64,000 nucleotides of DNA from Polytrichum commune (taxonomy: Eukaryota; Streptophyta; Polytrichopsida; Polytrichales; Polytrichaceae): contig OX485805.1 of NCBI GenBank assembly GCA_950295325.1, positions 43,796,758-43,860,757 on the forward strand, given 5' to 3'. Position 1 is the stretch's first letter, and each line of letters starts with the position of its first letter. The notes under the pieces were generated by a model. It ran no database searches and was not told where the DNA came from. It saw only the letters and a program-made list of their open reading frames with translations. Shown here one piece after another: positions 563-64,000 of the stretch. The position numbers were made by a program, and so were the translations under genes.

Positions 563-719
563 CTTAGTTATTCTTTCTAGGAGTATGTACCAATGATACT
601 ACGGTTCTAATTTGAAAAATAAGTGTTTGAGATGGTATATTATTATGCAATGCTCACTAATTTGGAGCTGAAGTTGGTGGGAATTCTGATGTTAAGATAA
701 TATGTAACAGATTATGCAG

Positions 720-1190
720 GTACTTTGGGATTGATAAGTTCATATGAGACTTTTGCCCAAGAGTTTATTGTCCATGACCTTGACCCTAAATTGGGTGAAT
801 CAGATCGGATTTTGCTGGGGCCGAAGCGGGCAGGGAATCGTTATAAAAAGGCAAGTGAAGGCATCATGCTTATGGCCTGGTGAATGTGTTTCTCCTTTGC
901 AGTTTCCTGTCAAGGACAGAATTTGTTGTCCAGTTCTTGTGGCTCATGGGGGGAGACCGGGGAAATGTGCAGGTTCTTAAAATGAGACAGCTGGATCGAA
1001 ATGAATCCCAAGGCTATCAAGAACCTCTTGTAGAAGCCTTGCTGCAAAGTCTGTCGTATCATAAGGATCATGAGAATTTAGTTGGATATTGTGCCCATAA
1101 CAACCAACTTTTCTTGTTGTACAATTTGACCCCTCTGCGGAGTCACCTCCTAAGCAAGTTACTAGCTTGGGGATGGTCTTGAATTTGCTG
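720..1190 (+). pseudogene. RLCK-VII-like kinase N-lobe fragment (copy A)
   Basis: Two exon-like blocks follow AG acceptors (after 719 and after about 901). The second reads KMRQLDRNESQGYQEPLVEA followed by LLQSLSYHKDHENLVGYCAHNN. This matches subdomains II-V of receptor-like cytoplasmic kinases of the PBS1/PBL group (family pattern VAVKQLDRNGLQGxxEFLVEV then LxHPNLVxLIGYCAD). The K of the VAVK motif is kept as K in KMRQ. The reading ends soon after subdomain V; no HRD, DFG or APE follows. It is a truncated, non-catalytic fragment, and its paralogue lies at 19830-20345. Alternative: the last exon of a larger upstream gene that was cut off when the duplication formed. Confidence 0.75.
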
Positions 1191-13625: not shown

Positions 13626-13649
13626 ATGGTCGCTGACACCAATGGCTAA
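13626..13649 (+). promoter_or_regulatory. Overlapping upstream ORF (MVADTNG-stop)
   Basis: ATGGTCGCTGACACCAATGG then CTAA encodes seven codons in another frame and straddles the kinase start codon at 13642. The paralogue keeps the same layout (61752-61775, MLADTNG-stop). A ribosome starting here would terminate just past the main ATG, a layout that usually lowers main-frame translation. Alternatively this ATG is skipped by leaky scanning. Confidence 0.6.
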
Positions 13650-15993
13650 TTATTTGGAATTTGCTGGAGCTCTCCTAGATGAAATTGAGAGTGGTTTGTC
13701 GACCAGGAGGATCATCTTGCAATTGAACGACGCACAGTGCAGTCGCCTCCTTGGAAATCTTAGAAACACTCGTGATCATTTTTACCCGAGCCTATTGTTC
13801 CCAACACGTACACTACGTCAAAAATGTCTTCCATTTCATAAGGAGTTCTATCGCATTGTGGAGCATACAGAAGCAATCGTGAAGGAGTGCAGTAAGCCGG
13901 ATTGGCTGGAAGCAGCCATCATGCAAGCGGGCAACCAAGAGGTATTTATACAGATGTCCCGGAAGCTCCATTTCTGCATCAATGGGTTTACTAAGACCGT
14001 TAAAGCTGTTGAAGGTGTTCTTGACATCTGCAGTGAAATTGCGTTCACTGCTCCAAGTGTAACAGTGGAGCAACATAAGGAGGACTTCCGTCAAGATTCT
14101 TTGAAATTTATGGAACGACTTAAGGAGGTCGTGAACCAACAGGTTTCAGAGGACACCATCCTAGATCCTAGGAAACACCAACTCGCAGAATACCTCATTG
14201 AACGCGAGAATTACGTGCCGTCCACAAACCTTGACTTGTATACATCTCTCCCACAATTCTACGTTGCAAAGCGTGAGTACCCAAGAGTTGGGGAACCCAT
14301 TGGGTCAGGCGCAGCTGGATCAGTTCTGAAGGTGCGCTGGTTGGGGCTAGAATGTGCTAAAAAATACTTTGCTACTAATCCTGATGAGAGTAACTCACCA
14401 CGGAAGTTGGAGCTAATGAAGGAGGTGAGCGCCCTGGTGCATTTAAGCCATCCACATATTGTAAAGCTGCTCTGTGTGAGTATGGAACGTGAGGCTTCTT
14501 TTTTGATGGAGCTCATGCCGATGAGCCTCCATAATTTCATCAAGAAACGATGGAAGGGGCAGAAATACGTCCCCTTTACATTGGCAGCTGCCACTGACAT
14601 TATGTTGCAGATTGCCCTAGGTATGGAATATCTTCATGGCAAAAGAGTGGTCCATCGCGACTTGAAATCCCAGAATATCCTTGTCACCCCTTCAGCTTGT
14701 GAAGGACTCTCTGATGAGGGCTATGGAGACATTAAGGTGACAGATTTTGGGTTGTCTAAGACACTGACTCATGAGTTAACTGAGCCTACTGGGATATTAG
14801 GAACTACTCGTTGGATGGCACCCGAGCTGTTAAGATTGAAAGAAGGCTTGAAACCAAAAATTGATTGGAGAAAAGCCGACACTTGCAGCTTTGCAATGAC
14901 GTGTTCGGAGATACTCACAGGGGCTATACCTTTCTCTGAAAGTGATTGCAGAATAGCTATGCTGTATGAAAGGATCACCAAGGGTGGAGAAAGACCAGAG
15001 CTGCCTTTGGCATGTCCAAAATTTCTAGCATCTTTGTTGACACAATGCTGGGATACAAATCCAGCTCTCCGTCCCAGTTTCACCGAGATCTGCAACATGC
15101 TTCAACTCCTCCAAGGTTACCTAATCAGAGGCTCTGAACTGATCCACAAGAGCTGGTCAATAGTAGAAACTTCGAGTATGGATCAAACGAGTGCACTCAG
15201 ATGTGCAACAACGCCAGAGCAGGACATACTAGTTAAAGTAGGCTTATCCTCGTTGAAGCAGTCCATATTTGACACGTTCTTCAGGTCCTCCAAGATCTTG
15301 ATGTCGCAGTTGATAAATCCCCAGTGTGATGGGGAGGCTCTGTCATCTATCTTCTTCATGGGGAATTTCCCACAACCAGTGGGTTTACGGGGAGTCCAGG
15401 TATTTGAATTTAATTCCTCTCTAAACTATGAGTCAAGGAAGGAATTGGATTTGAGGACGATGGCAAAGTGTAGATATTTTGTAGAGGGGATGAAGGCATT
15501 GACTGACAATCCTCGGAACCATCTGGTGAAATTGCAATACTGGCATTACGCTTCTTTCAAACACTCAGAACATAAGAGACTTTATGCTGTATATGACGCT
15601 TGGTCAAGCACTCTTTACGAGCATCTCAGTGGATTAAAGAATACGCTCCCTTGGAATACACGGTTACATATATTAACTGGATTTATGGCATGTGTTGTGT
15701 ACTTCATGGAGCTGATTGAGCTCAATGTGATTAGCTCCATTTCTCTCAGCACCAAAAGCGTCCTCCTGGACAAGAGCTACAACTTACAATTTACTGATGT
15801 AAGTTTGGTGCACGACGCTCGACATGTTCAGGCAACCAATGGGGATAATCTGAAAGGCATGGTTTACGAGATTGGAATTTTCATAATGGAGGTTCTAGGT
15901 GGAATCAGGGAGGACCATATTGGTACCTCAGATCGATATGCAGCAGTAGTGAAACTTATCTTAGATCCACAGTGGGAGCAAGGCTTCAATTGA
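13642..15993 (+). CDS. TKL/Raf-like kinase with C-terminal pseudokinase domain
   Basis: A single-exon frame of 783 codons. Residues about 1-200 form a helical N-terminal region whose pattern (LNDAQCSRLL, KEFYRI, KPDWLEAAI, then KLHFCINGF) resembles DUF1221, found in front of plant TKL kinases; this assignment is inference. Kinase domain, residues about 211-490: glycine loop GSGAAGSV, lysine at 240/241 (CAKKYF), HRD 338-340 in VVHRDLKSQNIL, DFG 368-370, APE 393-395, and Arg477 in RPSFTEI. All catalytic residues are present. Residues about 540-783 look like a second kinase fold without HRD or DFG (NVISSISLSTKSVLLD in place of the catalytic loop), so a pseudokinase. An in-frame TAA upstream fixes the ATG at 13642. 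The frame closes at 15993, but the homology continues in another frame, so the protein is truncated or the gene is decaying. Confidence 0.88.
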   Translation: MANYLEFAGALLDEIESGLSTRRIILQLNDAQCSRLLGNLRNTRDHFYPSLLFPTRTLRQKCLPFHKEFYRIVEHTEAIVKECSKPDWLEAAIMQAGNQEVFIQMSRKLHFCINGFTKTVKAVEGVLDICSEIAFTAPSVTVEQHKEDFRQDSLKFMERLKEVVNQQVSEDTILDPRKHQLAEYLIERENYVPSTNLDLYTSLPQFYVAKREYPRVGEPIGSGAAGSVLKVRWLGLECAKKYFATNPDESNSPRKLELMKEVSALVHLSHPHIVKLLCVSMEREASFLMELMPMSLHNFIKKRWKGQKYVPFTLAAATDIMLQIALGMEYLHGKRVVHRDLKSQNILVTPSACEGLSDEGYGDIKVTDFGLSKTLTHELTEPTGILGTTRWMAPELLRLKEGLKPKIDWRKADTCSFAMTCSEILTGAIPFSESDCRIAMLYERITKGGERPELPLACPKFLASLLTQCWDTNPALRPSFTEICNMLQLLQGYLIRGSELIHKSWSIVETSSMDQTSALRCATTPEQDILVKVGLSSLKQSIFDTFFRSSKILMSQLINPQCDGEALSSIFFMGNFPQPVGLRGVQVFEFNSSLNYESRKELDLRTMAKCRYFVEGMKALTDNPRNHLVKLQYWHYASFKHSEHKRLYAVYDAWSSTLYEHLSGLKNTLPWNTRLHILTGFMACVVYFMELIELNVISSISLSTKSVLLDKSYNLQFTDVSLVHDARHVQATNGDNLKGMVYEIGIFIMEVLGGIREDHIGTSDRYAAVVKLILDPQWEQGFN

Positions 15994-18900
15994 CCCCTAA
16001 GCTAGAAACTCATTACCATGCAGACCAAGCTCGTACTCTCGTGACCCTCAGTCTCATGTGTACACATCCTTATGAGCATGCGAGGCCAACCATTTGGTCA
16101 GCTCTGGATATAATTAAATCAACTGCGGATATGGCAACAAATTTGACTCGTTCTCGAGTCCACCAGCAATTTTCAGAATTTGGTTTCCTCGAGCTTCTGA
16201 GTACAAATGTGAAGAAGTGAGAGATATGACTAGCAATTTCTCGACGCCCAAACGATATGGGAAGTACCTCGGGACATTGTCAAATGGAGAGAAAGTACTG
16301 GTGGACCAGTTGCATCCTAGTTCTGCATCTCCGAAAGAGTTTATCGATCAGGTACATTATCTAATGAAATAATTGTGGATGGAACACAACCACCGCATTT
16401 CCTCATTTCAATAGCTCTCAGATTATGGTATTTATATGGTATGAAGTGACCAGACCTGGTGTGAAGAATTTGAGATTGCACTCAGGAGGTATGCAAGTTC
16501 GTTTCAGTGCCTCACAAGGCCATTTTATGCACTTCGAGAAACAATTGAGAGGTTTGATAAGAATTTGGGAACTAGAGTATTATCTCAACTGAGGTGCCTG
16601 GTTCTAATGTTTCAATTTGTGTAGACCAATGTTGGTTTGGTATATTGGTGAATGCATGGTATCAATAATCAACATCCGTGATGGTATGGAAGAACCACCC
16701 GTGGGTGTCAGAATTGTACACCAGTCAAATATTGATATTTGGTTGGTATGTCAAGGTGAGAATATTTGTAGAGCCGAATTACTATTTGGGTTAGTACCAT
16801 TCGAATCCATATTGATATTGGGGAGTTTTTTCCTAGGTATGAAGGTTCTTGCAATGTGGATAGACCCGAATTGTATCGAAAACAAAAGTACCGTCAACTA
16901 TCTATACCCTACTGGTCTAAAGAAATGTGAAATCCTCATCATAGATACTCAGTGGGTATGAGAAGAAGACGATACGAGACCAACACTGGTCTAAACTATA
17001 TTGAGAGATTTGATTTCTTTGTTCTAGGTCAAGATGTACACAAAACTGCCAACTTGGGGTTTGGTCATGAACCCAATTGGCTTCTGCGTGGAGGAGGGTG
17101 AGAAAATACTCATATACGGGGATATGGAGACAATGCCTGCACAAGTATATCTAGGTGAGTCACAGTAGTTTTGTAGGAATTTGATTCTACGATATTCAAA
17201 TTTGTGCAGTGATTGATGCGATTGTTGCCCTTTTGTGCAGTTGTATCTCGTGTATGTTGATGTATTGAGGATAGAATTATGGTTTTTGGCACAGGGGTTC
17301 TTGCAAAGGTTTCTCTAATTACATCCAAACAACACTCAAAAGCATTGCAGGGCGGAAGTGTAAGGAGGTTCTTAAACCATTACCACTTAATTTCCAGAAT
17401 CATTGTCAGAAGGACAATCATTGTTCTTAGAATGCCATCCGTAGATTGTGCACATTTAGGGCAATATATATGCATTGATTATGAGATACTTTGACACTTC
17501 ATTCCCAAATGTTTAATGAAGCATGTGGTTATAGACCAGAGGGATATGGAGACAATGCCTCGAAAAGTATATCTGGGCAAGTCGCACTAATGTCCTAGGA
17601 ATCTGATCCTATCAGATTCAATCTTGCCGTGATAGTTATGTTTGATTTTTTCAGTTGTATCTAGTGTATGTTGATGTTTTGAAGATAGAAATATGTTCTT
17701 TGGCAGAGCATAATGCAAAGGTTTCCGTAATTACAGCCAACCCACACTCGATAGCATTGCAAATCGCAAGTGGTAAATTGACTTTTCAACCATCACCACT
17801 TCATTTTGCAAAATCATTCAGTCGCACAACCATTGTTCTTAGAGTGCCATCCTTGGCTTTTCAAGCAATATTATATATGAGATACTTTGACACCTTCATC
17901 CCCAGATGTTTCATGAAGCATGTGGTTGTGCACGAAATAGGCTTGATTTCGTTATGCAACATGGGCATCGTCCTCCACAACACAACTGTTGATAATATTT
18001 ATGTGACAAGAAATGGAGATGTGATGTTTGGATTACAATTTGAGGAAGAAAACAGCTTGACGAAGTCTGAGTAAGGACTATATTTCTCACTAGCTCTGAA
18101 GTCTTGATTTTTAGATAGGCTATGTGTGTCACCATCACGTTGTGCTTGTATAGTTAATCGTTGGCCTAGTGAACTTGATTATCCTTGTGATCTACTGGTA
18201 GGATTCATGTCAAACTTTAAAGTCCAGGTATTTCATCCCCCATGATCTTGGTTATGCAGGAAATTGTCAAAGCAAATGGAAGATTTTGGTACCATATTGG
18301 GGAAGCTTGTATGCGGGCCAAAATGGCAGTCATCTTTTGGTACACCTATGCACTTGAAGAATATGGTAATATTGTCCCTTTTAAATCATGAAATTTCTTG
18401 CATTAGCCTTGTGAACTACAAGAATCAGTTGGGCTCATCACATGCTCCAAGCAGGTGATGATTGCGTCCAATGTCATGACACATCCGCAACTTTTCTTAT
18501 CTATCTATCTATGCACTGGATTGGGACTATTTTTAATTCGTCTTTCATAAATTCGAAATTCAACTTCCACGAATAAAACTTATTATTCTCAAGAATCATG
18601 AGATGAATATTGCAGTTGTGATGTTCATGGGTCATGAATTAAGTAAGGTGGAGCATGCTAAACCATTACCCCACCCAAAACCGACACCCTAAAATCTTCC
18701 ACAATAAGTACATCTTGATTTTGAGAATGTTCACCAGCTTAACATCAACCTCCCGAGTCCCCTGATGCATTTGGATCATGTACCAACAAAACTTTGAATC
18801 CTTGTAACTATTGCACACGGCATTGGGATAAGGCATAATGTGATGCATTGGAATCCCTTTCAATTGCAAATGAGAAACATTAGGCATTTGTCCATCTAAT

Positions 18901-19410
18901 ATATGTAGATATACTAAGGGTTTTTTACAACGGTTTTAGCATTGTCTACTTTATGTGGCCACTTCAACAACTTTGTCAATTCACTTTGAGGCATAAATGA
19001 CTATGTTAATTCAACGTTCAACAAGAAGAATTTGTTATTTTACACAAAAGGCTAAAGGAGTATCTGCAAGTTTAATAAGTGGAATAGGCTTAGATATTTG
19101 TGTACATAACAAGCCATGAATATCAAGAGTTTTGCTTTTGAATGTCTCACTTTATAGATAACAAAAAAAACTAGAAACTAAGACAAATATTGCAGGCAAT
19201 TCATATTGAGCAGTTTGTGGATCCTGGGTTTCGCAAATTCAACAACTTGGCGATGTCACAACTTGCAATTCTAGCATCGTTGTGCCTAGAAGAGGGGCAT
19301 GCAAGATTGAGTATGGTTGACGTCATTCAAGAGCTAGAAGGAGTGGCGCAATCATGGAGAGGTATGGAAGTTCAGGTTTCAGTTGTGGTTCTTACAGATA
19401 GACCTATTTC
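15970..19410 (+). pseudogene. Decayed continuation: end of pseudokinase plus RLK-like kinase
   Basis: Beyond the stop, the pseudokinase C-lobe continues in the next frame (QARTLVTLSLMCTHPYEHARPTI, 16023-16100). A third frame then gives EYKCEEVRDMTSNFSTPKRY followed by GKYLGTLSNGEKVLVDQLHP (to 16351), a typical receptor-like-kinase N-lobe. Its VAVK lysine is replaced by Asp. Further exon-like blocks are 17028-17154 (NPIGFCVEEGEKILIY, subdomain V), about 17940-18074 (GIVLHNTTVDNIYVTRNGDV, where HRD and DFG are lost) and 19196-19362 (EQFVDPGFRKFNNLAMSQLA, then LCLEEGHARLSMVDVIQELE, subdomain XI). Two frame changes and loss of every catalytic motif indicate a dead domain. If spliced, it would be a scaffold-like pseudokinase. 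Confidence 0.72.
17121..17937 (+). repeat. Intragenic tandem duplication, ~420-bp unit
   Basis: GATATGGAGACAATGCCT recurs at 17121 and 17543, followed by the same intron-exon arrangement (cagTTGTATCT.GTGTATGTTG, later AAGCATGTGGTTAT or TTGT). The two units (17121-17542, 17543-about 17937) are clearly diverged. They duplicated one exon and its flanking introns within the RLK-like domain, which would itself disturb the kinase fold. Confidence 0.85.
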
Positions 19411-19829
19411 CTTGTCATTTTTATGAACGTCTACCACCTCAATGGTAGTTGAATTGGTTAGAATGTTTAGCTTGGAATAGATGTCAAACATGGAGCCAAC
19501 AACTTGAGTAGCTGGGATACATCTTCATCAGTGATATAGGTGCGATTCAGATCTTCGCCAAATCACGCTACTGGTGCCCATTGTAATTCACCCACCAATT
19601 CGAAGGTCACCGGATCAATCGGTCATCTTAGAAATTGTGGACACTGAGGGGCTTAGCGAACTTAGTTATACTTTCTAGGAGTATGTACCAATGATTCTAT
19701 GGTGCTGATGAGATGGAACTTATTAGAAAAATAAGTCGTTGAGATGGTATATTATTATACAACCTTCACTAATTTTGAGGTGAAGCTGATGGAAATTCTG
19801 ATGTTAAGATGATATGTAACAGATAATGC

Positions 19830-20345
19830 AGGTACTTTGGGATTGACAAGTTCATATGAGACTATTGCCCGGGAGTTTGCTCTCCATGAGCTTGATGCCA
19901 CTCATGAAAACTTCGCTCTGGAGCATCTACCTGGCGAGTGTGAATCAGGTTGTCATCTGCTGGAGATGATCCTGGAAAGGTCTCATCAGGCAAGTGAAGG
20001 CATCATGTTTTATGGCCTGGTGAATGTGTTTCACCTTTGCAGTTTCCTGTCAAAATTTGTCGTCCAGTTCTTGTAAGGATACTAGATACTATAGGTTCTT
20101 GTGGCTCATGGGGGGGAGACCAGGAAAATGTGCAGGTTCTTCTAATGAAACAGCTGGATCGAAATAGGCTCCAAGGCTATCAAGAACCTCTTGTACAAGT
20201 CTTGCTGCAAAGTCTGTCGTATCATCGGAATTTTGTGAATTTAATTGGATATTGTGCCCATAACAACCGACTTTTCTTGGTGTGCATTGTGCCCCCTCCG
20301 CGTTCTTTCTTGATGATCTCGATATTACATAGGGTAAGCTTTTGA
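19830..20345 (+). pseudogene. RLCK-VII-like kinase N-lobe fragment (copy B)
   Basis: The first block, after the acceptor tgcag at about 19830, reads REFALHELDATHENFALEHL then PGECESGC. This resembles the RLCK/RLK entry motif FxLxELxxATxNFxxENLLGEGGFG. The second block reads LLMKQLDRNRLQGYQEPLVQ followed by VNLIGYCAHNNRLFLV. This is subdomains I-V of a PBS1/PBL-type kinase. The glycine loop is degraded (GECESGC) and no C-lobe follows. With the domains upstream it would be the fourth kinase-related segment of one locus. Confidence 0.75.
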
Positions 20346-28261: not shown

Positions 28262-28346
28262 AAATACTTTCATTTCTCGACACCCAAACGATATGGGAAG
28301 TACCTCGGGAAATTGTCAAGTGGAGAGAAAGTACTGGTGGAGCCGT
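28262..28346 (+). pseudogene. Stray kinase-exon fragment
   Basis: TTTCTCGAC.CCCAAACGAT and the next ~55 bases match the RLK-like exon at 16238-16310 with only a few differences. The fragment abuts the end of the piggyBac relic on one side and a MITE on the other. It is too short to encode a domain. It shows that a piece of the kinase locus was copied 12 kb away, perhaps by a further duplication later eroded. Confidence 0.88.
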
Positions 28347-28349
28347 TGC

Positions 28350-31179: not shown

Positions 31180-34100
31180 ATGGCAGGAGGTGAGGGGGAT
31201 GCAATCGATATGGCGGAGCGGGGAGACGTTCCAGCGGCGGTGGAGAATGGCGAGAATAGGAAGAAGAGGAAGAAAACGAAGTTTGACATTGAGATGCTAG
31301 GAGGGGAGGGGGATGCACCCGATATGGCGGAGCGGGGAGACGCTACCGCGGCGGTGGAGAATGGCGAGAAGAGGAAGAAGAGGAAGAAAACGAAGATTGA
31401 CATTGAGATGCTAGGAGGGGAGGGGGATGCACCCGATATGGCGGAGCAGGGAGACGCTCCCGCGGCGGTGGAGAATGGCGAGAATAGGAAGAAGAGGAAG
31501 AAAACGAAGTTTGACATTGAGATGCTAGGAGGGGGAGTTGCGGAGGTCAGCGGGATTATGAGTAACACCGCCTTCGACACCTTACCGGTGTCGGAGCCAA
31601 CTAAAAACGCTCTTCGTGACACCGGGTTTACTCACATGACTGAGGTATGTGTCTTAGTCAGGAGGCATTCTCGTTTTCAATTTTACATTGATGGTCTTGT
31701 GTAATGTCCTTGGTTGTGATCGCGGTACTGAGAATTCACCCCTCTGATGTTTGCCTGCTTGTGCGCACATGCGGTGTACATCAAATTTCTACAAGGGGAC
31801 TAAATGTATTTGTCATAGGGGATCAAAATTTCAGACCATAATTGTGCATGAGGGGAGTGGTGCAGATTCAAGCAAGGTCAATACCTCAGCTTTTGACTGG
31901 ACGCGATGTCCTTGGAGCTGCGCGGACAGGGTCTGGAAAAACCCTTGCATTTGTGGTCCCAGCAGCTGAGCTGCTTTTTCATGGGAATTTTATGCCGCGG
32001 AGTGGCACTGGTGTGATCGTCATCTCTCCCACACGAGAGCTTGCCATGCAGGTACTATTGAATATCATCACTCTTCAGGTTTTAAGAGTACTGACATTCG
32101 CTAGGCTGCAACCTTCCTACATTTTGCCCTTCAAAGTAGAATTACAGGCATACGACCAGCTTAGTCACAGCCTCCCAGTCCTCCGCACAAGTCCAGCTCG
32201 GTGTAGGGTGGACAGTGGGCTGAGTTTTTAAACACCTGCTGCAGATTTACGGAGTCGCAAGGGATATTTTAAAGTATCATAAGCAAACACACGGCATTGT
32301 CATGGGGGGAGCAAACAGGCGAACAGAGGCTGAGAAACTAGCCAAGGGTGTGAACTTCGTGGTCGCTACTCCAGGGCGTCTACTGGATCATCTTCAGAAT
32401 ACCAAGGGTTTCCTATTCAAGAATTTGAAGGTTGGCGACTTTTCTTCTTACAAAAGCTCATACTCCTCTTCTGTGATGCTAAAGACATGGGAGGTACTGT
32501 TGACGAGGATGTCAAAATAAGCTATGGTCATTATGTCATTAATGATGGTTTTGTGGAGTTCAATGGTCAACTGTAGCAATTCAAGGGCCTGGCAGCTGGT
32601 GTGTCGCTTGAATTACTAGTGATGAGTGCATGCCCGCAAGTAATCCCCACGTGCAAAATTTTCTGGATGATGCAGTGCCTAGTGATAGATGAAGCTGATC
32701 GAATTTTGGAGATAGGTTTTGAGGAGGAAATGAAGCAAATTATCAAGCTCCTACCGAAGGTCTGTGCACTTGCAAACTCTTTTCTAGTACAGTGCTCACT
32801 TGGTGTCTATTTAATATGCTGCATCCTATGATCTGATAGCAGTGCAGCAGGTGGCGCTGATATCTGATGTCCTACTTAACTTCCAGTGGTTGTCTCAAAT
32901 GTCATAGCTTTCAAGTTTGTTGATATGTTTAATTTAAATTTTTTTTGTTGATTGTTCAGGAACGACAGACTGTCCTCTTTTCTGCCACTCAGACAACTAA
33001 GGTTTGTCAATTGCTTCTACTCTCTTCATGATAATCAGATTTTTGCTGCATTGTACTTGGAGGTGGTTGTGATGCTTTGTTGTAAGGACTGCAATGGAAG
33101 TTCTGTTGAATAGTTACATGTTTTAGTTTGTCTTGAGTCAAACTGACTGCTCCTATACCACAGGTGGAAGACTTGGCACGTGTGTCATTCAAGAGGGCTC
33201 CTTTGTACATTGGTGTAGACGACGGTAGAGCAAAGGTATGTAAGAATGCAAAAGAAGGAAATGTAAAGATGCATTTATTACTCTGTTGTTCCTGTAATTT
33301 CTGTTGCTTCGATCCTTAATCTACATTTTGTCTTTGGCTGTTTGGCAGGCGACAGTGGAAGGGTTAGAGCAAGGGTATTGTGTAGTTTCAAGTACACAAC
33401 GGTTTCTGCTCCTCTTTACATTCTTGAAAAAAAATATAAAGAAAAAGGTACTACTCTGCGTTTCTTATGAGCAGTCTTGTCGATGATGTTTATATTGCTG
33501 AGGTTCTCATATTCAGATATCTTCAAGCACCAGTGTCAAGTTATTGAACATATTACTCGAATATCAAGACTTTTGCATTTGTAAGCAATGTAAATATGCT
33601 TCAAACTTGCAAGTGGTGATTGCTGCCAGAAAGATCTCTAAATTTTGCTATTGGTGAAAGGTGGGGATCAGGAAGTCTATGTAGGTTTTTAAGATTTGGC
33701 TCCTTTTGCACTCAAATTCCTGTGTGTTTGTGGATTTCTTTACAGATAATGGTCTTCTTTTCATCTTGTAACTCTGTCAAGTTTCATAGTGAGCTGCTTA
33801 ATTACATCGACATCCCTTGTCTCGACATTCACGGCAAACAGAAGCAACAGAAGAGAACATCAACTTACTTTGAGTTCTGCAATGCTGAGAAGGGCATCCT
33901 CCTCTGTACAGATGTTGCTGCTCGTGGTTTGGACATCCCAGCAGTGGTATGTTTTCTTACAAACCTTTATCAATAGAATGCCAATGTGAGTACTGAAATC
34001 ATGGAGATCTTTATTTATACATGTTTCTGGAAGAATGTATTTGCATCACAATCTGTTCTTTTATTAGACATTAGGATGTTTTGAGCAGTGTTTAGATACC

Positions 34101-40065: not shown

Positions 40066-43000
40066 ATGGAAGAGACAAGTGAAGATGCACAGAGCCAGAG
40101 CAGCAGGAGCGAGGATTTTCGAGAGGCAGATGTCTCAACTGCTGCTGGAGCTTCCGAAGGGGGGAGGGGAATAGAGGAGCAAGGTGGGGGAGAAAGGAAG
40201 GAGGAGGAGAAAGAAGCAACAGTGGGAGGGGAAACTCGCAGTTCGAAGCCCGGATGCAAGCGCTTGCTCATTACTCTCTCGGTTGTCTTCTCTTTCCTTC
40301 TCGGTGGGTTTTTCTCGTCTTCACTTGTTCCTGAACCAAGCTTGCAATTACTTATCACATACAAGTGGGAACTCTAGAAGTTCGATAGATGGCAATACAG
40401 AGCGGAGGACCTGAATTTTCTTTCTATGTGCTCTTTCACCTCTTTTAAACCCTAATTCGGGATGCTATGGCAGCCTATTGCCCACTTCTTCCCATTAGGC
40501 CGTTGCAGCTGAAGAATCAAAATTAGTTTGATCATGATTCAGGATCCATCTCTTGCCCAAATCGACTCTTCGCTAAATCCAGAACCAAGCTTGCAACTCA
40601 TCACAAGATTGTGGAACGCCCAGCAGTTGGATAGATGGCAATGCGGAGCGGAGGACCTGAATTTGTTCCTATGTGCTCACTCACCTTTTTAAAACCCTCA
40701 TGTGGAATGGTTCTGCGACCTTTTGACTTCTTCTTCCTCCCATTAGGCCCTTTAGCTCTGGTGAGTGATGCAGCTGAAGAATCAAAGTTTTAGGTTGATA
40801 TTGATTCAGGATTCATCTCTTCGCTAATTCTTGAACCAAGCTTGCAACTCATCTCCTACATATGCCCACGCATTAACCTATCGCTGTCGGACGTTTTCTA
40901 ATGTGAACTTGGACCTTATACCTCTCCCAGCTTGTCCCTGCATTTACCTAGCAAACATAGCAATGCATTCAGTTTTTTGGTTTCAATTTCTGTGGTGCTG
41001 GAAAATTGAACAACTTAACTTCTTTGTTGGAGGGAGGGTTCATTGAAGTGTCTGAGACCCTTTTTTCTCAATCCTTGATCTTCCTTTGATGTGCTCCCTG
41101 TTGCTTATTTTTGTGTAAGCTCTTACAGCATCGAAAGTTGGTTTGTCAGCCATACCAGGACTGTCTATCATGGTTCTTCCCAGCTTTTGGAATGCAATAA
41201 ACTTGTTGAAAGTTAGCATGAATTCCAGAGGTCTCAGTTTGTTGGTGTTCATATAATGCAGGAGTTCCAGGCTGGTGGAAATCCACAGAAGTATATCGTG
41301 CACCACTTCCTTTTTCTGCTATCGAAGAGCACGCAATTGACCTTGCTTCTTCAGCTTTTGCTCTCCCCTGCCACTTGCACATTATATTTGCTGTCAACCC
41401 ATCAGTACACACTCAACAACTAGGTTTAATGAGTGAGAAGTCTTTATATAAAGTTGCGAATTCCTTTCAACAACACATTGACAAGGTTGTGCGTGGAACG
41501 CAATCAAATCACTCTGAAGGATGCTTTTCCAACTTTAGAGTTTTGGTTACTTTGGATGCAGCCAATTCATGTGTTAACACAGGAAATGAGAACGGGTTTG
41601 AACAATGGCCCTGTGGACTGGCTAAATCTGGTCTTCATGAGATTGTTCAGCTCTTGGATGATAAGGGCATTGATGATTTTCTTTGGAGTTTTTCTAAAGG
41701 AGGAAGTTCTAGTACAGGGGGACGCTACACAGTCGTGGTCATTGGAAAAGGACCAAACGAGGAGATTATAGAAGGCACTACTGGGAAAAAACTAGCTGGT
41801 GGTACAGGTTCAATTGACAGGACCGTAGTGGGAACACATAGGCATGCCTGGATGACAGGTGTTGATTTCTCAGTTTCTGGTTTTGAGGAAGAGATTGCCT
41901 CTCATATAGCACAGGTGGCTGTCACCTATTTTAGAAATGGAGGAAACAAAAGAGGAAACCCAGAGGTGGATCATGTGGCGAGCTTGCCTCTTTCAGCCGA
42001 TGGGGAGGCAATTTTATCCTTCTCACTGTTAAATGCGAATCCTGAAGACTGGATCTTTGACTGGTAATCTATTTTGAAGTGCTCAATTGATATGCATGTC
42101 AGTGTTTCAATTTCTCTTGTTTCACAGATTTTTGTCTATGGCCCCTGAAAATGATTTGCCTCCATTTGGCTATGGCTGCATCCTTGTTCTCTTTTCATTC
42201 ATTGTTTGTCTTCTCTTACTTCCCTTCACTGCTTTTTATTTGAGTATGTAATTCTTGGATCTCTGGATTGGGTATGTCTCAAATAATGATTACGTACTTG
42301 AATAAAAAGCAGTTCCAATAGTTACTTTAGGTGATACTCTCATATTATAAGATAGTTTAACCCAGTTTGATAGTGGTCAAACAGAGTGTCAGCTTAGAGT
42401 TTCCGTATAGAGGTTTTCCTTGTTTTTTGGTAGTCCTCCAACCTGCACTATCCTAGTGCATGCTTAGGGTTTAAACAACTGCAGGTGTTTGGTGTTGCTG
42501 TTGTCTGGTACTTTGAAAAGAGATTATGGGTGCGCTCTCAATTGTGTTCAATGCCATGAAAACCAGGGATATTGAAGAGATGGAGGAGCGCTATCTAAAG
42601 CCACTCATAGCAGTCATGGAACCTGTTGCTCGCCTCTCTGTGGAGAGCCAGGTCAGTAACCTTTATATGAGGTTCGATATGAGTTTCCATTATAGGTTGC
42701 AGAGGAACTGCTTGTGATTACTTATGCTAAGAGCAGCTCATATGGTCACTGTAGAATGATTCTCTCAAGATTTGGCTTTGAAGTATTGCGGGCCAATGCT
42801 GCATGCTCATCTCACACATAAGAGTTCATATATATTATCAATCCGCATTGCCCACCGATCATTGAAAGAGAGATGGACCTCTAAAATCCTTTTGACTGTC
42901 AATTCTTGAGGTTGGGAAGGGTTTAGAGGGTTGTCTCTCATTCATTAATCAGTTGGCAATAAGAATTTGGAAAGGGTGGAATGAGCATGCAGTCTTGCTC

Positions 43001-61751: not shown

Positions 61752-61775
61752 ATGCTCGCTGACACCAATGGCTAA
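61752..61775 (+). promoter_or_regulatory. Overlapping upstream ORF (MLADTNG-stop)
   Basis: Same layout as 13626-13649: a seven-codon frame overlapping the kinase ATG at 61768. Only the second codon differs (Leu for Val), so the overlap has survived duplication. Confidence 0.6.
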
Positions 61776-64000
61776 TTATTTGAGGTTTGCTGGAGCTGTC
61801 CTAGATGAAATTGAGAGTGGTTTGTCGACCAGAAGGATCATCTTGCAGTTGAACGACGCGCAGTGCAGTCGCCTCCTTGGAGATGTTAGAAAAACTCATG
61901 ATCATTTTTACCAGAGCCTATTGTTCCCAACACGTACACTACGTCAAAAATGTCTTCCATTTTATAAGGAGTTCTATCGCATTGTGGAGGATACAGAATC
62001 AATCGTGAAGGAGTGCAGTAAGCCGGATTGGCTGGAAGCAGCCATCATGCAAGCGGGCAACCAAGAGGTATTTATACAGATGTCACGGAAGCTCCATTTC
62101 TGCATCAATAGGTTTAATGAGACCGTTGAACCCGTTCTTCACATCTGCAGTAGCATTGAGTTCACTGCTCTAAGTGTAACAGTGGAGCAATATGAGAGGG
62201 ATGAGGACTTCTGTCGAGATTCTTTGAAATTTATGGAACGACTTATGGAGGTCGTGAACCAACAGGATTCAAATGACACCATTATAGATTCTCGGAAACA
62301 CCAACTCGCAGAATACCTCATTGAACGTGAGAATTACGTGTCATCCACAAATCTTGACTTGGATACATCTCTCCCACAATTCTATGTTGCAAAGCGTGAG
62401 TACCCAAGACTTGGGGAACCCATTGGGTCAGGATCAGCTGGATCGGTTCTGAAGGTGCACTGGTTGCGGCTAGAATGTGCTAAAAAACACTTTGCTACTA
62501 ATCCTGATGAGAGTAACTCACCACGGAAGTTGGAGCTAATGAAGGAAGTGAGCGCCCTGGTGCATTTAAGCCATCCACATATTGTAAAGCTTCTCTGTGT
62601 GAGTATGGAACGTGAGGTTTCATTTTTGATGGAGCTCATGCCGATGAGCCTCCATAACTTCATCAAGAAACGATGGAAGGGGCAGGAATACGTCCCCTTT
62701 ACATTGGCAGCTGCCACTGACATTATGTTGCAGATTGCCTTAGGCATGGACTACCTTCATGGCAAAGGAGTGGTTCATCGTGACTTGAAATCCCAGAATA
62801 TCCTTGTCACCCCTTCAGGTTGTAAAGGACTCTCTGATGAGGGCTATGGAAACATTAAGGTGACAGATTTTGGGTTGTCTAAGACACTGACTCATGAATT
62901 AACTGAGCCTACTGGGATATTAGGAACTCCTCGTTGGATGGCACCCGAGGTGTTAAGATTGAAAGAAGGATTAAAACCAAAAATTGATTGGAGGAAAGCC
63001 GACACTTACAGCTTTGCAATGACGTGTTCGGAGATACTCACTGGGGATACACCTTTCTCTGAAAGTGATTGCAGAATAGATATGTTGTATGAAAGGATCA
63101 CCAAGGGTGGAGAATTGAAAGACCAGAGCTGCCTTTGGCATGTCCAAAATTTCTAGCATCTTTGTTGACACAATGCTGGGATACAAATCCAGCTCTCCGT
63201 CCCAGTTTCACCGAGATCTGCAACATGCTTCAACTCCTCCAAGGTTTCCTATTCAGAGGCTCTGAACTGATCCACAGGAGCTGGTCATTAGCAGAAACTT
63301 CGAGTTTGGATCAAACGAGTGCACTCAGACGTGCAACAGGGCCAGAGCAGGTCATACTCTCTATAGTAGGCTTATCCTCGTTGAAGGAGATGAAGTTGGA
63401 CACGTTCCTCAGGTCCTCCAAGTTCTTCAGGTCGCAGTTAATAAGTCCCCAGTACTGTGATCGGGAGGTTTTGTCATCCATCCTCATGGGGAAATTCCCA
63501 CAACCAGTGGGTTTACGGGGAGTACAGGTATTTGAATTGAATTCCCCTCTGAACTACGACTCAAGGAAGGAATTGGAATTGAGGACGATGGCAAAGTGTA
63601 GATATTTTGTAGAGGGGATGAAGGCATTGACTGACAATCCTCGTAATCATCTGGTGAAATTGCAATACTGGCATTACACTCCTTCCTGGCTGTATAACAG
63701 GCTTTATGTTGTGTATGACGCTTGGTCAAGCACTCTTGACGAGCATCTCAGTGGATTAAAGAAGACGCTCCCGTGGAATACACGGTTACATATATTAACT
63801 GGATTCATGGCATGTGTTGTGTACTTCATGGAGCTGATTGAGCTCAATGTGATTAGCTCCATTTCGCTCAGCACCAAAAGCGTCCTTCTGGACAAGAGCT
63901 ACAACTTACACTTTACTGATGTAAGTCTGGTGCACGACGCTGGACATGTTAAGGCAACCAACGGGGAGAAAGGCATGGTTTACAAGATTGGAATTTTCAT
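61768..64000 (+). pseudogene. TKL kinase paralogue with 5-bp insertion, partial
   Basis: The main frame runs to 63156 (462 codons) and holds the helical N-terminus, glycine loop GSGSAGSV, CAKKHF lysine, HRD 337-339, DFG in VTDFGLSKTL and APE. Relative to the 13642 gene, five extra bases (TTGAA, about 63114-63118) after KGGE shift the frame and end it early, removing subdomains X-XI. Past that point the homology continues in another frame through RPSFTEICNM and the pseudokinase part (VKLQYWHYTPSW, ELNVISSISLST) to the window end. It could still make a C-terminally truncated kinase. An assembly or read error is the main alternative. Confidence 0.85.

What the first reader, a model, noticed from the sequence alone, without database searches (positions are those of the whole stretch)
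13642..20345. Multi-kinase locus: active TKL kinase followed by three decayed kinase-related domains
One transcription direction carries, in order, a DUF1221-like helical region, a complete TKL kinase, a pseudokinase (no HRD/DFG), an RLK-like N- and C-lobe with lysine, HRD and DFG lost, and an RLCK-VII-like N-lobe. Kinase-pseudokinase fusions are known plant immune receptors (tandem-kinase proteins such as WTK-type proteins). A helical domain plus (pseudo)kinase also recalls MLKL-type architecture. The combination with four kinase-related segments from three families is one I do not recognise as described.
Basis: partly seen in the sequence, partly recalled or inferred. Interest (0 to 1): 0.72.

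Follow-up and report, generated by a model that had tools for sequence, protein, structure and literature searches.

The report
Four-kinase gene family in a moss
A probable moss genome carries a small family of genes that seem to join a helical head and one working kinase to three dead copies of other plant kinases; the copy in this window is broken but sister copies are intact, and the design resembles known plant immune receptors.

Summary
In detail: window 13642-15993 is a 783-aa frame (helical head, complete TKL kinase, pseudokinase), followed on the same strand by two more kinase-derived segments.

The window copy W is damaged. The genome holds nine copies: eight within about 0.21 Mb and one on another contig. 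In 5 of 9, exon 1 runs open from head through kinase and pseudokinase into the third domain. W has a 2-nt insertion at 15989 and a 10-nt deletion near 16190, and no exons 8-9. In copies A and H a nine-exon model reads as one 1382- and 1392-aa frame holding four kinase domains. Exons 2-5 look coding. The pseudokinases resemble an L-type lectin RLK, a Pto-like RLK/RLCK (weakly) and PBS1-type RLCK-VII. The last shares its exon boundaries, including a GC-AG intron, with a PBS1-type gene. The head is DUF1221-like through a bridge sequence, and also caps kinase-NB-ARC-LRR genes.

Best reading: a kinase-fusion immune receptor, possibly a decoy array. Function is inferred; no RNA or second species was available. 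New variant of a known kind.

The parts
13642..14277 (+). Helical head of copy W, DUF1221-like through a bridge sequence
   Evidence: low-confidence all-helix model, pLDDT 43
14290..15102 (+). Catalytically complete TKL kinase (residues 217-487)
   Evidence: Pfam 3e-45; omega 0.44, LR 17.6 over nine copies for residues 211-427
15244..15993 (+). Pseudokinase 2, L-type lectin RLK-like, cut short in W by the frameshift
   Evidence: full in copies A, C, E, F, H
15989..15990 (+). 2-nt insertion in W relative to the eight other copies; causes the stop at 15993
16189..16190 (+). Place of a 10-nt deletion in W relative to copy C
16202..16351 (+). Start of the third kinase domain (N-lobe), end of exon 1
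16352..17027 (+). Inferred intron 1, with a MITE-like element at about 16622-16993
   Evidence: donor present in 7 of 9 copies, missing in B and G
17028..17154 (+). Inferred exon 2 (third domain)
   Evidence: 17028-17144 was the stretch tested
17941..18070 (+). Inferred exon 3 (third domain, decayed catalytic loop); 5' boundary uncertain
   Evidence: 17907-18068 was the stretch tested
18260..18365 (+). Inferred exon 4 (third domain)
19196..19361 (+). Inferred exon 5 (third domain, end of C-lobe)
19823..19989 (+). Inferred exon 6 (RLCK-VII-like fourth domain), followed by a GC donor
20136..20333 (+). Inferred exon 7 (fourth domain N-lobe); exons 8-9 are missing in W
   Evidence: 3' end by comparison with copy A
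713..1134 (+). Tail (partial exons 6 and 7) of the neighbouring copy F
61768..64000 (+). Head, kinase and part of pseudokinase 2 of copy G (frameshifted; runs off the window)

Best explanation
The locus is a damaged member of a nine-copy family encoding one multi-kinase protein: a DUF1221-like (plant MLKL-type) helical head, one catalytically complete TKL kinase, and three pseudokinases derived from other kinase families (L-type lectin RLK; a Pto-like RLK/RLCK, weakly assigned; PBS1-type RLCK-VII). Most likely it is an intracellular immune receptor of the kinase-fusion kind. The pseudokinases bind or mimic kinases that pathogen effectors attack and hold the working kinase in check; disturbance releases the kinase, which signals or frees the head to trigger cell death. 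Shown by sequence: domain order, one open frame through four domains in the spliced models of A and H, loss of catalytic motifs, frame maintenance of exons 2-5, exon structure shared with a PBS1-type gene, and the same head-kinase module on a kinase-NB-ARC-LRR gene. Inferred: one mRNA, sensing, restraint, cell death, immunity. W itself is probably a pseudogene or a truncated product.
For: Nine copies in order. Exon 1 open in 5 of 9. Exons 2-5 clean in 9 of 9 versus 16 of 2405, 0 of 2135, 27 of 2477 and 0 of 2117 control placements; joint omega 0.58, 1 of 200 control sets as low. A and H single frames of 1382 and 1392 aa; between them exons 1-8 have 1 indel, in frame, against 9 in introns. PBS1-type boundaries with the same GC-AG intron. 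Lectin-RLK origin of pseudokinase 2. Head-kinase module on NB-ARC-LRR gene L051 and at least 26 of 46 non-family head-kinase hits with NB-ARC within 3 kb. Tandem array with 4 of 9 exon-1 frames broken, as in birth-and-death families. Kinase fusions with resistance roles and a proposed decoy mechanism: passages of PMC6170490, PMC10260399, PMC11153570.
Against: No RNA; one genome; copies are recent duplicates, so shared order is partly shared descent. Only A and H keep the whole fourth domain; exons 8-9 were not found in the other six non-G copies, and exons 6-7 are degraded in several. A-H omega over the frame is 0.82 and 0.93 in kinase 1: loose constraint. With intact copies alone the kinase core is only p 0.029. 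The exon 2/3 join was chosen by me. Exon 9 differs by 16% between A and H, with two indels. Exon 1's donor is missing in B and G. No immune or cell-death evidence.
Confidence: 0.5

Rival explanations
1. The functional gene is exon 1 only: a head-kinase-pseudokinase protein of about 900 aa ending just inside intron 1. Later kinase pieces are relics of captured genes carried along by duplication.
For: In A, C, E, F and H exon 1 runs 903-919 codons to a stop just past the donor. Exons 8-9 found only in A, G, H; exons 6-7 degraded in several copies. Exon 2/3 join uncertain. In single-segment tests downstream exons do not exceed the largest non-coding control.
Against: Exons 2-5 clean in 9 of 9 copies, joint omega 0.58 with 1 of 200 controls as low; the exon-1 frame ends in the middle of a kinase N-lobe that continues in exon 2, and three own-genome kinase frames align straight across the join.
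Confidence: 0.2
2. A multi-kinase signalling protein with no immune role: the pseudokinases are allosteric regulators or scaffolds of the active kinase in growth or stress signalling.
For: Pseudokinases commonly regulate active kinases (established knowledge). There are no immune data here.
Against: Tandem array with broken copies, and a head-kinase module shared with NB-ARC-LRR genes, point towards immunity without proving it.
Confidence: 0.15
3. A dying family: the copies are mostly non-functional and the open frames of A and H are recent survivors without function.
For: 4 of 9 exon-1 frames broken; A-H omega 0.82; most segments do not differ from non-coding controls.
Against: Kinase core omega 0.44 with LR 17.6, above all 18 non-coding frames (largest 9.7). 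A-H exons 1-8 lack frame-breaking indels (0 against 7 in introns, P 0.009) and exons 2-8 change more slowly than introns (20 substitutions against 33 expected, P 0.009).
Confidence: 0.15

Closest known systems
Tandem kinase-pseudokinase proteins (WTK1/Yr15, RPG1) and kinase fusion proteins (Lr9/WTK6-vWA, Pm57)
   Same: Active kinase joined to pseudokinase(s) of other families; fusion origin; lectin-RLK and RLCK sources also occur among TKPs (PMC6170490, passages). That survey counts one TKP in Physcomitrella.
   Different: The 92 proteins of that survey have two kinase domains and no additional conserved domain; here up to four kinase domains plus a helical head, with a TKL kinase as the active one.
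PNL class of moss immune-receptor-like genes (protein kinase-NBS-LRR; PMC3352924, passages)
   Same: Same N-terminal head-kinase module in this genome: L051, and 26 of 46 hits with NB-ARC nearby.
   Different: No NB-ARC or LRR found in the family; pseudokinases stand in their place.
Plant MLKL / DUF1221-kinase proteins and Pm13 (PMC10951266, passages)
   Same: DUF1221-like helical head in front of a kinase; best PDB match 6lba, which I recall as an Arabidopsis MLKL.
   Different: Three extra pseudokinases; the head reaches the DUF1221 model only through a bridge. The Pm13 paper separates MLKL_NTD-kinase and DUF1221-kinase proteins into two clusters.
PBS1-type RLCK-VII kinase of the same genome (L058)
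   Same: 68% identity over exon 8 and matching exon boundaries, including a GC-AG intron.
   Different: L058 keeps lysine, YRD, DFG and a GDKTHVS stretch; in copy A these read R, CGN, GFR and a degenerate stretch.

Membership tests
Kinase fusion / tandem kinase protein, broad sense | Two or more kinase domains in one protein | tested here: met
   Exon 1 frame of A, C, E, F, H holds kinase and pseudokinase; four domains in spliced models of A and H. Not shown by RNA.
Kinase fusion / tandem kinase protein, broad sense | One domain with key catalytic residues, another without | tested here: met
   Kinase 1 complete; HRD and DFG absent from domains 2, 3 and 4
Tandem kinase-pseudokinase as surveyed in PMC6170490 | Two kinase domains and no additional conserved domain | tested here: not met
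   Up to four domains plus a DUF1221-like head
Kinase fusion / tandem kinase protein, broad sense | Role in disease resistance | not testable with these tools
   Needs mutants and infection
PNL (kinase-NBS-LRR) | N-terminal protein kinase | tested here: met
   Homologous head and kinase in L051
PNL (kinase-NBS-LRR) | NB-ARC and LRR | tested here: not met
   No such Pfam match in exon 1 of copies C and H or downstream exons of copy A
Plant MLKL / DUF1221-kinase | DUF1221 or MLKL_NTD helical bundle at the N-terminus | tested here: inconclusive
   E 0.036 directly, below cut-off; bridge L059 passes; model too poor; head profile found nothing in the PDB
Plant MLKL / DUF1221-kinase | Cell-death activity | not testable with these tools
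   Needs expression
RLCK-VII (fourth domain of copy A) | Closest to PBL/PBS1 kinases over the domain, with their exon structure | tested here: met
   PBL2 2.1e-49; boundaries. W has only exons 6-7.
L-type lectin RLK (pseudokinase 2) | Kinase domain closest to L-type lectin RLKs | tested here: met
   6cth 4.6e-7; L050 hhalign 98.1%, 32% identity. IRAK3 chains follow at 1e-6. No lectin domain in the family.
Pto/PTI1-like RLCK (third domain) | Kinase domain closest to that family | tested here: inconclusive
   Best hit 2qkw 5.8e-5, but 5xd6, SymRK and FERONIA lie at 1e-4 to 7e-4

The most novel reading that the evidence does not exclude
A new receptor design: the head-kinase module of moss kinase-NB-ARC-LRR receptors was re-used without NB-ARC and LRR and fitted instead with three captured pseudokinases from three kinase families. 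One chain would guard or mimic several defence kinases at once and execute cell death through an MLKL-type head. It would be convergent with, and more elaborate than, the cereal tandem kinases.
Probability: 0.35. Interest if true: 0.78.

Novelty: new variant of a known kind. Interest (0 to 1): 0.58.

Why it matters
Kinase fusion proteins are known as resistance genes mainly from cereals. A four-domain version in a probable moss, built on the same head-kinase module as its NB-ARC-LRR genes, would show that plants repeatedly build kinase-based receptors by capturing defence kinases. Copies A and H give a compact system in which the decoy idea can be tested domain by domain. The shared GC-AG intron suggests directly how one domain was gained: as genomic DNA of a PBS1-type gene, introns included.

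Tried and rejected
Structure prediction: pseudokinase 2 alone (1 sequence, pLDDT 34.2) and the head (2 sequences, pLDDT 42.8) were too poor, so no fold search was run. Head profile against the PDB: no hit up to E 10. DUF1221 model against the whole genome: one hit. Selection claims for single segments: not made for most, because non-coding controls from the same loci gave p<0.01 in 4 of 18 frames. The first fit of omega had not converged and is not used. That 15993 is the real gene end: rejected. That the fourth domain mimics a PBS1 cleavage site (recalled motif): not supported, since the GDKTHVS stretch of L058 is degenerate in copy A. Literature: nine searches, seen as listings with abstract starts; none listed a plant protein with four kinase domains. 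The Yr15 paper counts one two-domain TKP in Physcomitrella. I recall a later kingdom-wide TKP survey that these searches did not list; novelty is limited accordingly.
Full report
WHAT IS THERE. The frame 13642-15993 (783 aa) is real. Residues 217-487 are a protein kinase (Pfam 3e-45) with glycine loop, lysine, HRD, DFG and APE in the sequence. The best PDB match is 6lba (7.3e-43), which I recall as an Arabidopsis MLKL. The genome has 408 Mb in 64 contigs, seven of which hold about 406 Mb, and carries kinase-NB-ARC-LRR genes, a class described from mosses and not found in liverworts by its authors (PMC3352924, passages). I infer a moss.

NINE COPIES. The same genome holds nine copies: A-G and W (the window copy) on contig C3 between 43.65 and 43.87 Mb, and H on C1. 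Outside the family, head and kinase match 46 further rows at 32-38% identity (a scored subset of candidates). In A, C, E, F and H exon 1 is one open frame of 903-919 codons from head through kinase 1 and pseudokinase 2 into the third kinase's N-lobe. W has a 2-nt insertion at 15989, hence the stop at 15993, and a 10-nt deletion near 16190; B has a stop at codon 82; B, D and G carry frame-breaking indels.

DOWNSTREAM EXONS. Four stretches after exon 1 (17028-17144, 17907-18068, 18261-18365, 19196-19360) have no stop and no frame-breaking indel in 9 of 9 copies. Control placements in non-coding parts of the same alignment are equally clean in 16 of 2405, 0 of 2135, 27 of 2477 and 0 of 2117 cases for the four lengths. 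Joint omega is 0.58 over 183 codons; 1 of 200 control sets from flanks and introns is as low (median 1.11). Splice dinucleotides are kept in the copies shown, except that exon 1's donor is missing in B and G. The exon 1/2 join is supported by 2qkw (recalled as Pto; 5.8e-5) and by three own-genome kinase frames that align straight across it (E 7e-5 to 4e-3). The exon 2/3 join is uncertain: I chose a phase-compatible acceptor.

FOURTH DOMAIN. Copy A continues through exons 6-9 to a stop: a full RLCK-VII-like domain (PBL2 2.1e-49; Pfam kinase 8e-19) with lysine read as R, HRD as CGN and DFG as GFR. H and G also have exons 8-9, G with a stop in exon 9. In W, B, C, D, E and F no match to exons 8-9 was found in the stretches held. 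The spliced models of A and H are single frames of 1382 and 1392 aa. A PBS1-type gene of this genome (L058) is 68% identical over exon 8 and has matching boundaries: CAG|GCAAGTGA (a GC donor), GCAG| before exon 7, GCATGG|GTAGA after exon 8 and GCAG|GCACGACC before exon 9. So this domain was probably captured as genomic DNA, introns included.

ORIGINS. Pseudokinase 2 is closest to L-type lectin RLKs: PDB 6cth 4.6e-7 (IRAK3 chains follow at 1e-6); own-genome L050, which has a legume-lectin domain, hhalign 98.1% and 32% identity. Pseudokinase 3 is an RLK/RLCK; the Pto-like label rests on weak scores with SymRK and FERONIA close behind. The head is DUF1221-like through a bridge. The Pm13 paper calls the MLKL_NTD four-helix bundle also a DUF1221 domain, yet separates MLKL_NTD-kinase from DUF1221-kinase proteins as two clusters (PMC10951266, passages). 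The head-kinase module also stands at the N-terminus of a kinase-NB-ARC-LRR gene (L051); at least 26 of 46 non-family head-kinase hits have an NB-ARC within 3 kb downstream on the same strand (38 of 126 NB-ARC rows entered).

SELECTION. A codon model on nine copies gives omega: residues 1-145 1.86 (LR 6.5), 146-210 0.91 (0.1), kinase core 0.44 (17.6), end of kinase C-lobe 2.17 (5.4), linker and pseudokinase 2 N-lobe 1.65 (5.1), pseudokinase 2 middle 0.68 (2.2), pseudokinase 2 C-lobe and linker 2.05 (11.0), third N-lobe 0.55 (3.7). Eighteen non-coding control frames reached LR 9.7, with 4 at p<0.01. Only the kinase core is clear; the pseudokinase 2 C-lobe is suggestive of diversification. With the five intact copies alone the kinase core is 0.54 (p 0.029) and the pseudokinase 2 C-lobe 1.78 (p 0.053). 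Between A and H, exons 1-8 (3957 nt) hold 1 indel, in frame, against 9 in 4089 intron bases, 7 of them frame-breaking (P 0.012 and 0.009); exons 2-8 hold 20 substitutions against 33 expected (P 0.009). Against this, A-H omega is 0.82 overall and 0.93 in kinase 1, and exon 9, left out of these counts, differs by 16% with two indels.

HOW IT LIKELY WORKS. Shown by sequence: architecture, catalytic loss, shared modules, and a tandem array with intact and broken copies. From established knowledge: RLCK-VII kinases such as BIK1 are effector targets (stated in the Yr15 paper; PBS1, Pto and PBL2 recalled). Tandem kinases and kinase fusions give disease resistance in cereals, and a decoy role has been proposed (PMC6170490, PMC10260399, PMC11153570; passages). 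Inferred: the pseudokinases sense effectors and restrain kinase 1; release leads to kinase signalling and head-driven cell death.

COMPARISON AND NOVELTY. In the broad sense the intact copies are kinase fusion proteins. They do not fit the two-domain TKP description of 2018, and they are not PNL receptors, lacking NB-ARC and LRR. My nine literature searches listed no such architecture; a later kingdom-wide survey that I recall was not listed. I rate it a new variant of a known kind.

VERDICT. Whether the pieces belong together is answered, within this genome and by sequence alone, mostly in favour of one gene. The particular copy in the window is damaged.

Noticed in passing
16622-16993: MITE-like element with inverted ends (TAGACCARTGTTGG) inside intron 1; 26 dispersed copies at 78-80% identity were listed elsewhere in the genome, a capped list.
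   Followed up: partly
L056 (C1:10899800-10904500, minus strand): An open frame that joins the end of one HRD/DFG-bearing kinase, a second helical head and a second complete kinase: a head-kinase repeat protein.
   Followed up: partly
L048 (C2:62005782-62008955): A decayed relic of pseudokinase 2 with several stops, at a third chromosomal place.
   Followed up: partly
L020 (C1:72232667-72233191): A 525-base fragment, 91% identical to the intron 1 / exon 2 stretch of the family, away from any full copy.
   Followed up: no
L022 around C3:43658354 and L023 around C1:66112395: Downstream of copies A and H lies a second copy of the third domain's N-lobe exon with an 81-aa open frame.
   Followed up: no
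28271-28348: A 26-residue stretch 73% identical to the third domain's N-lobe (E 1e-4), a small relic inside the window.
   Followed up: no
17150-17900: A tandem duplication of about 0.4 kb inside the region between inferred exons 2 and 3, seen by eye in the sequence; it may explain why that part of the third domain is hard to read.
   Followed up: partly
31180-31704 and 41375-42067: Two other open frames in the window with no Pfam match over cut-off; identity unknown.
   Followed up: partly
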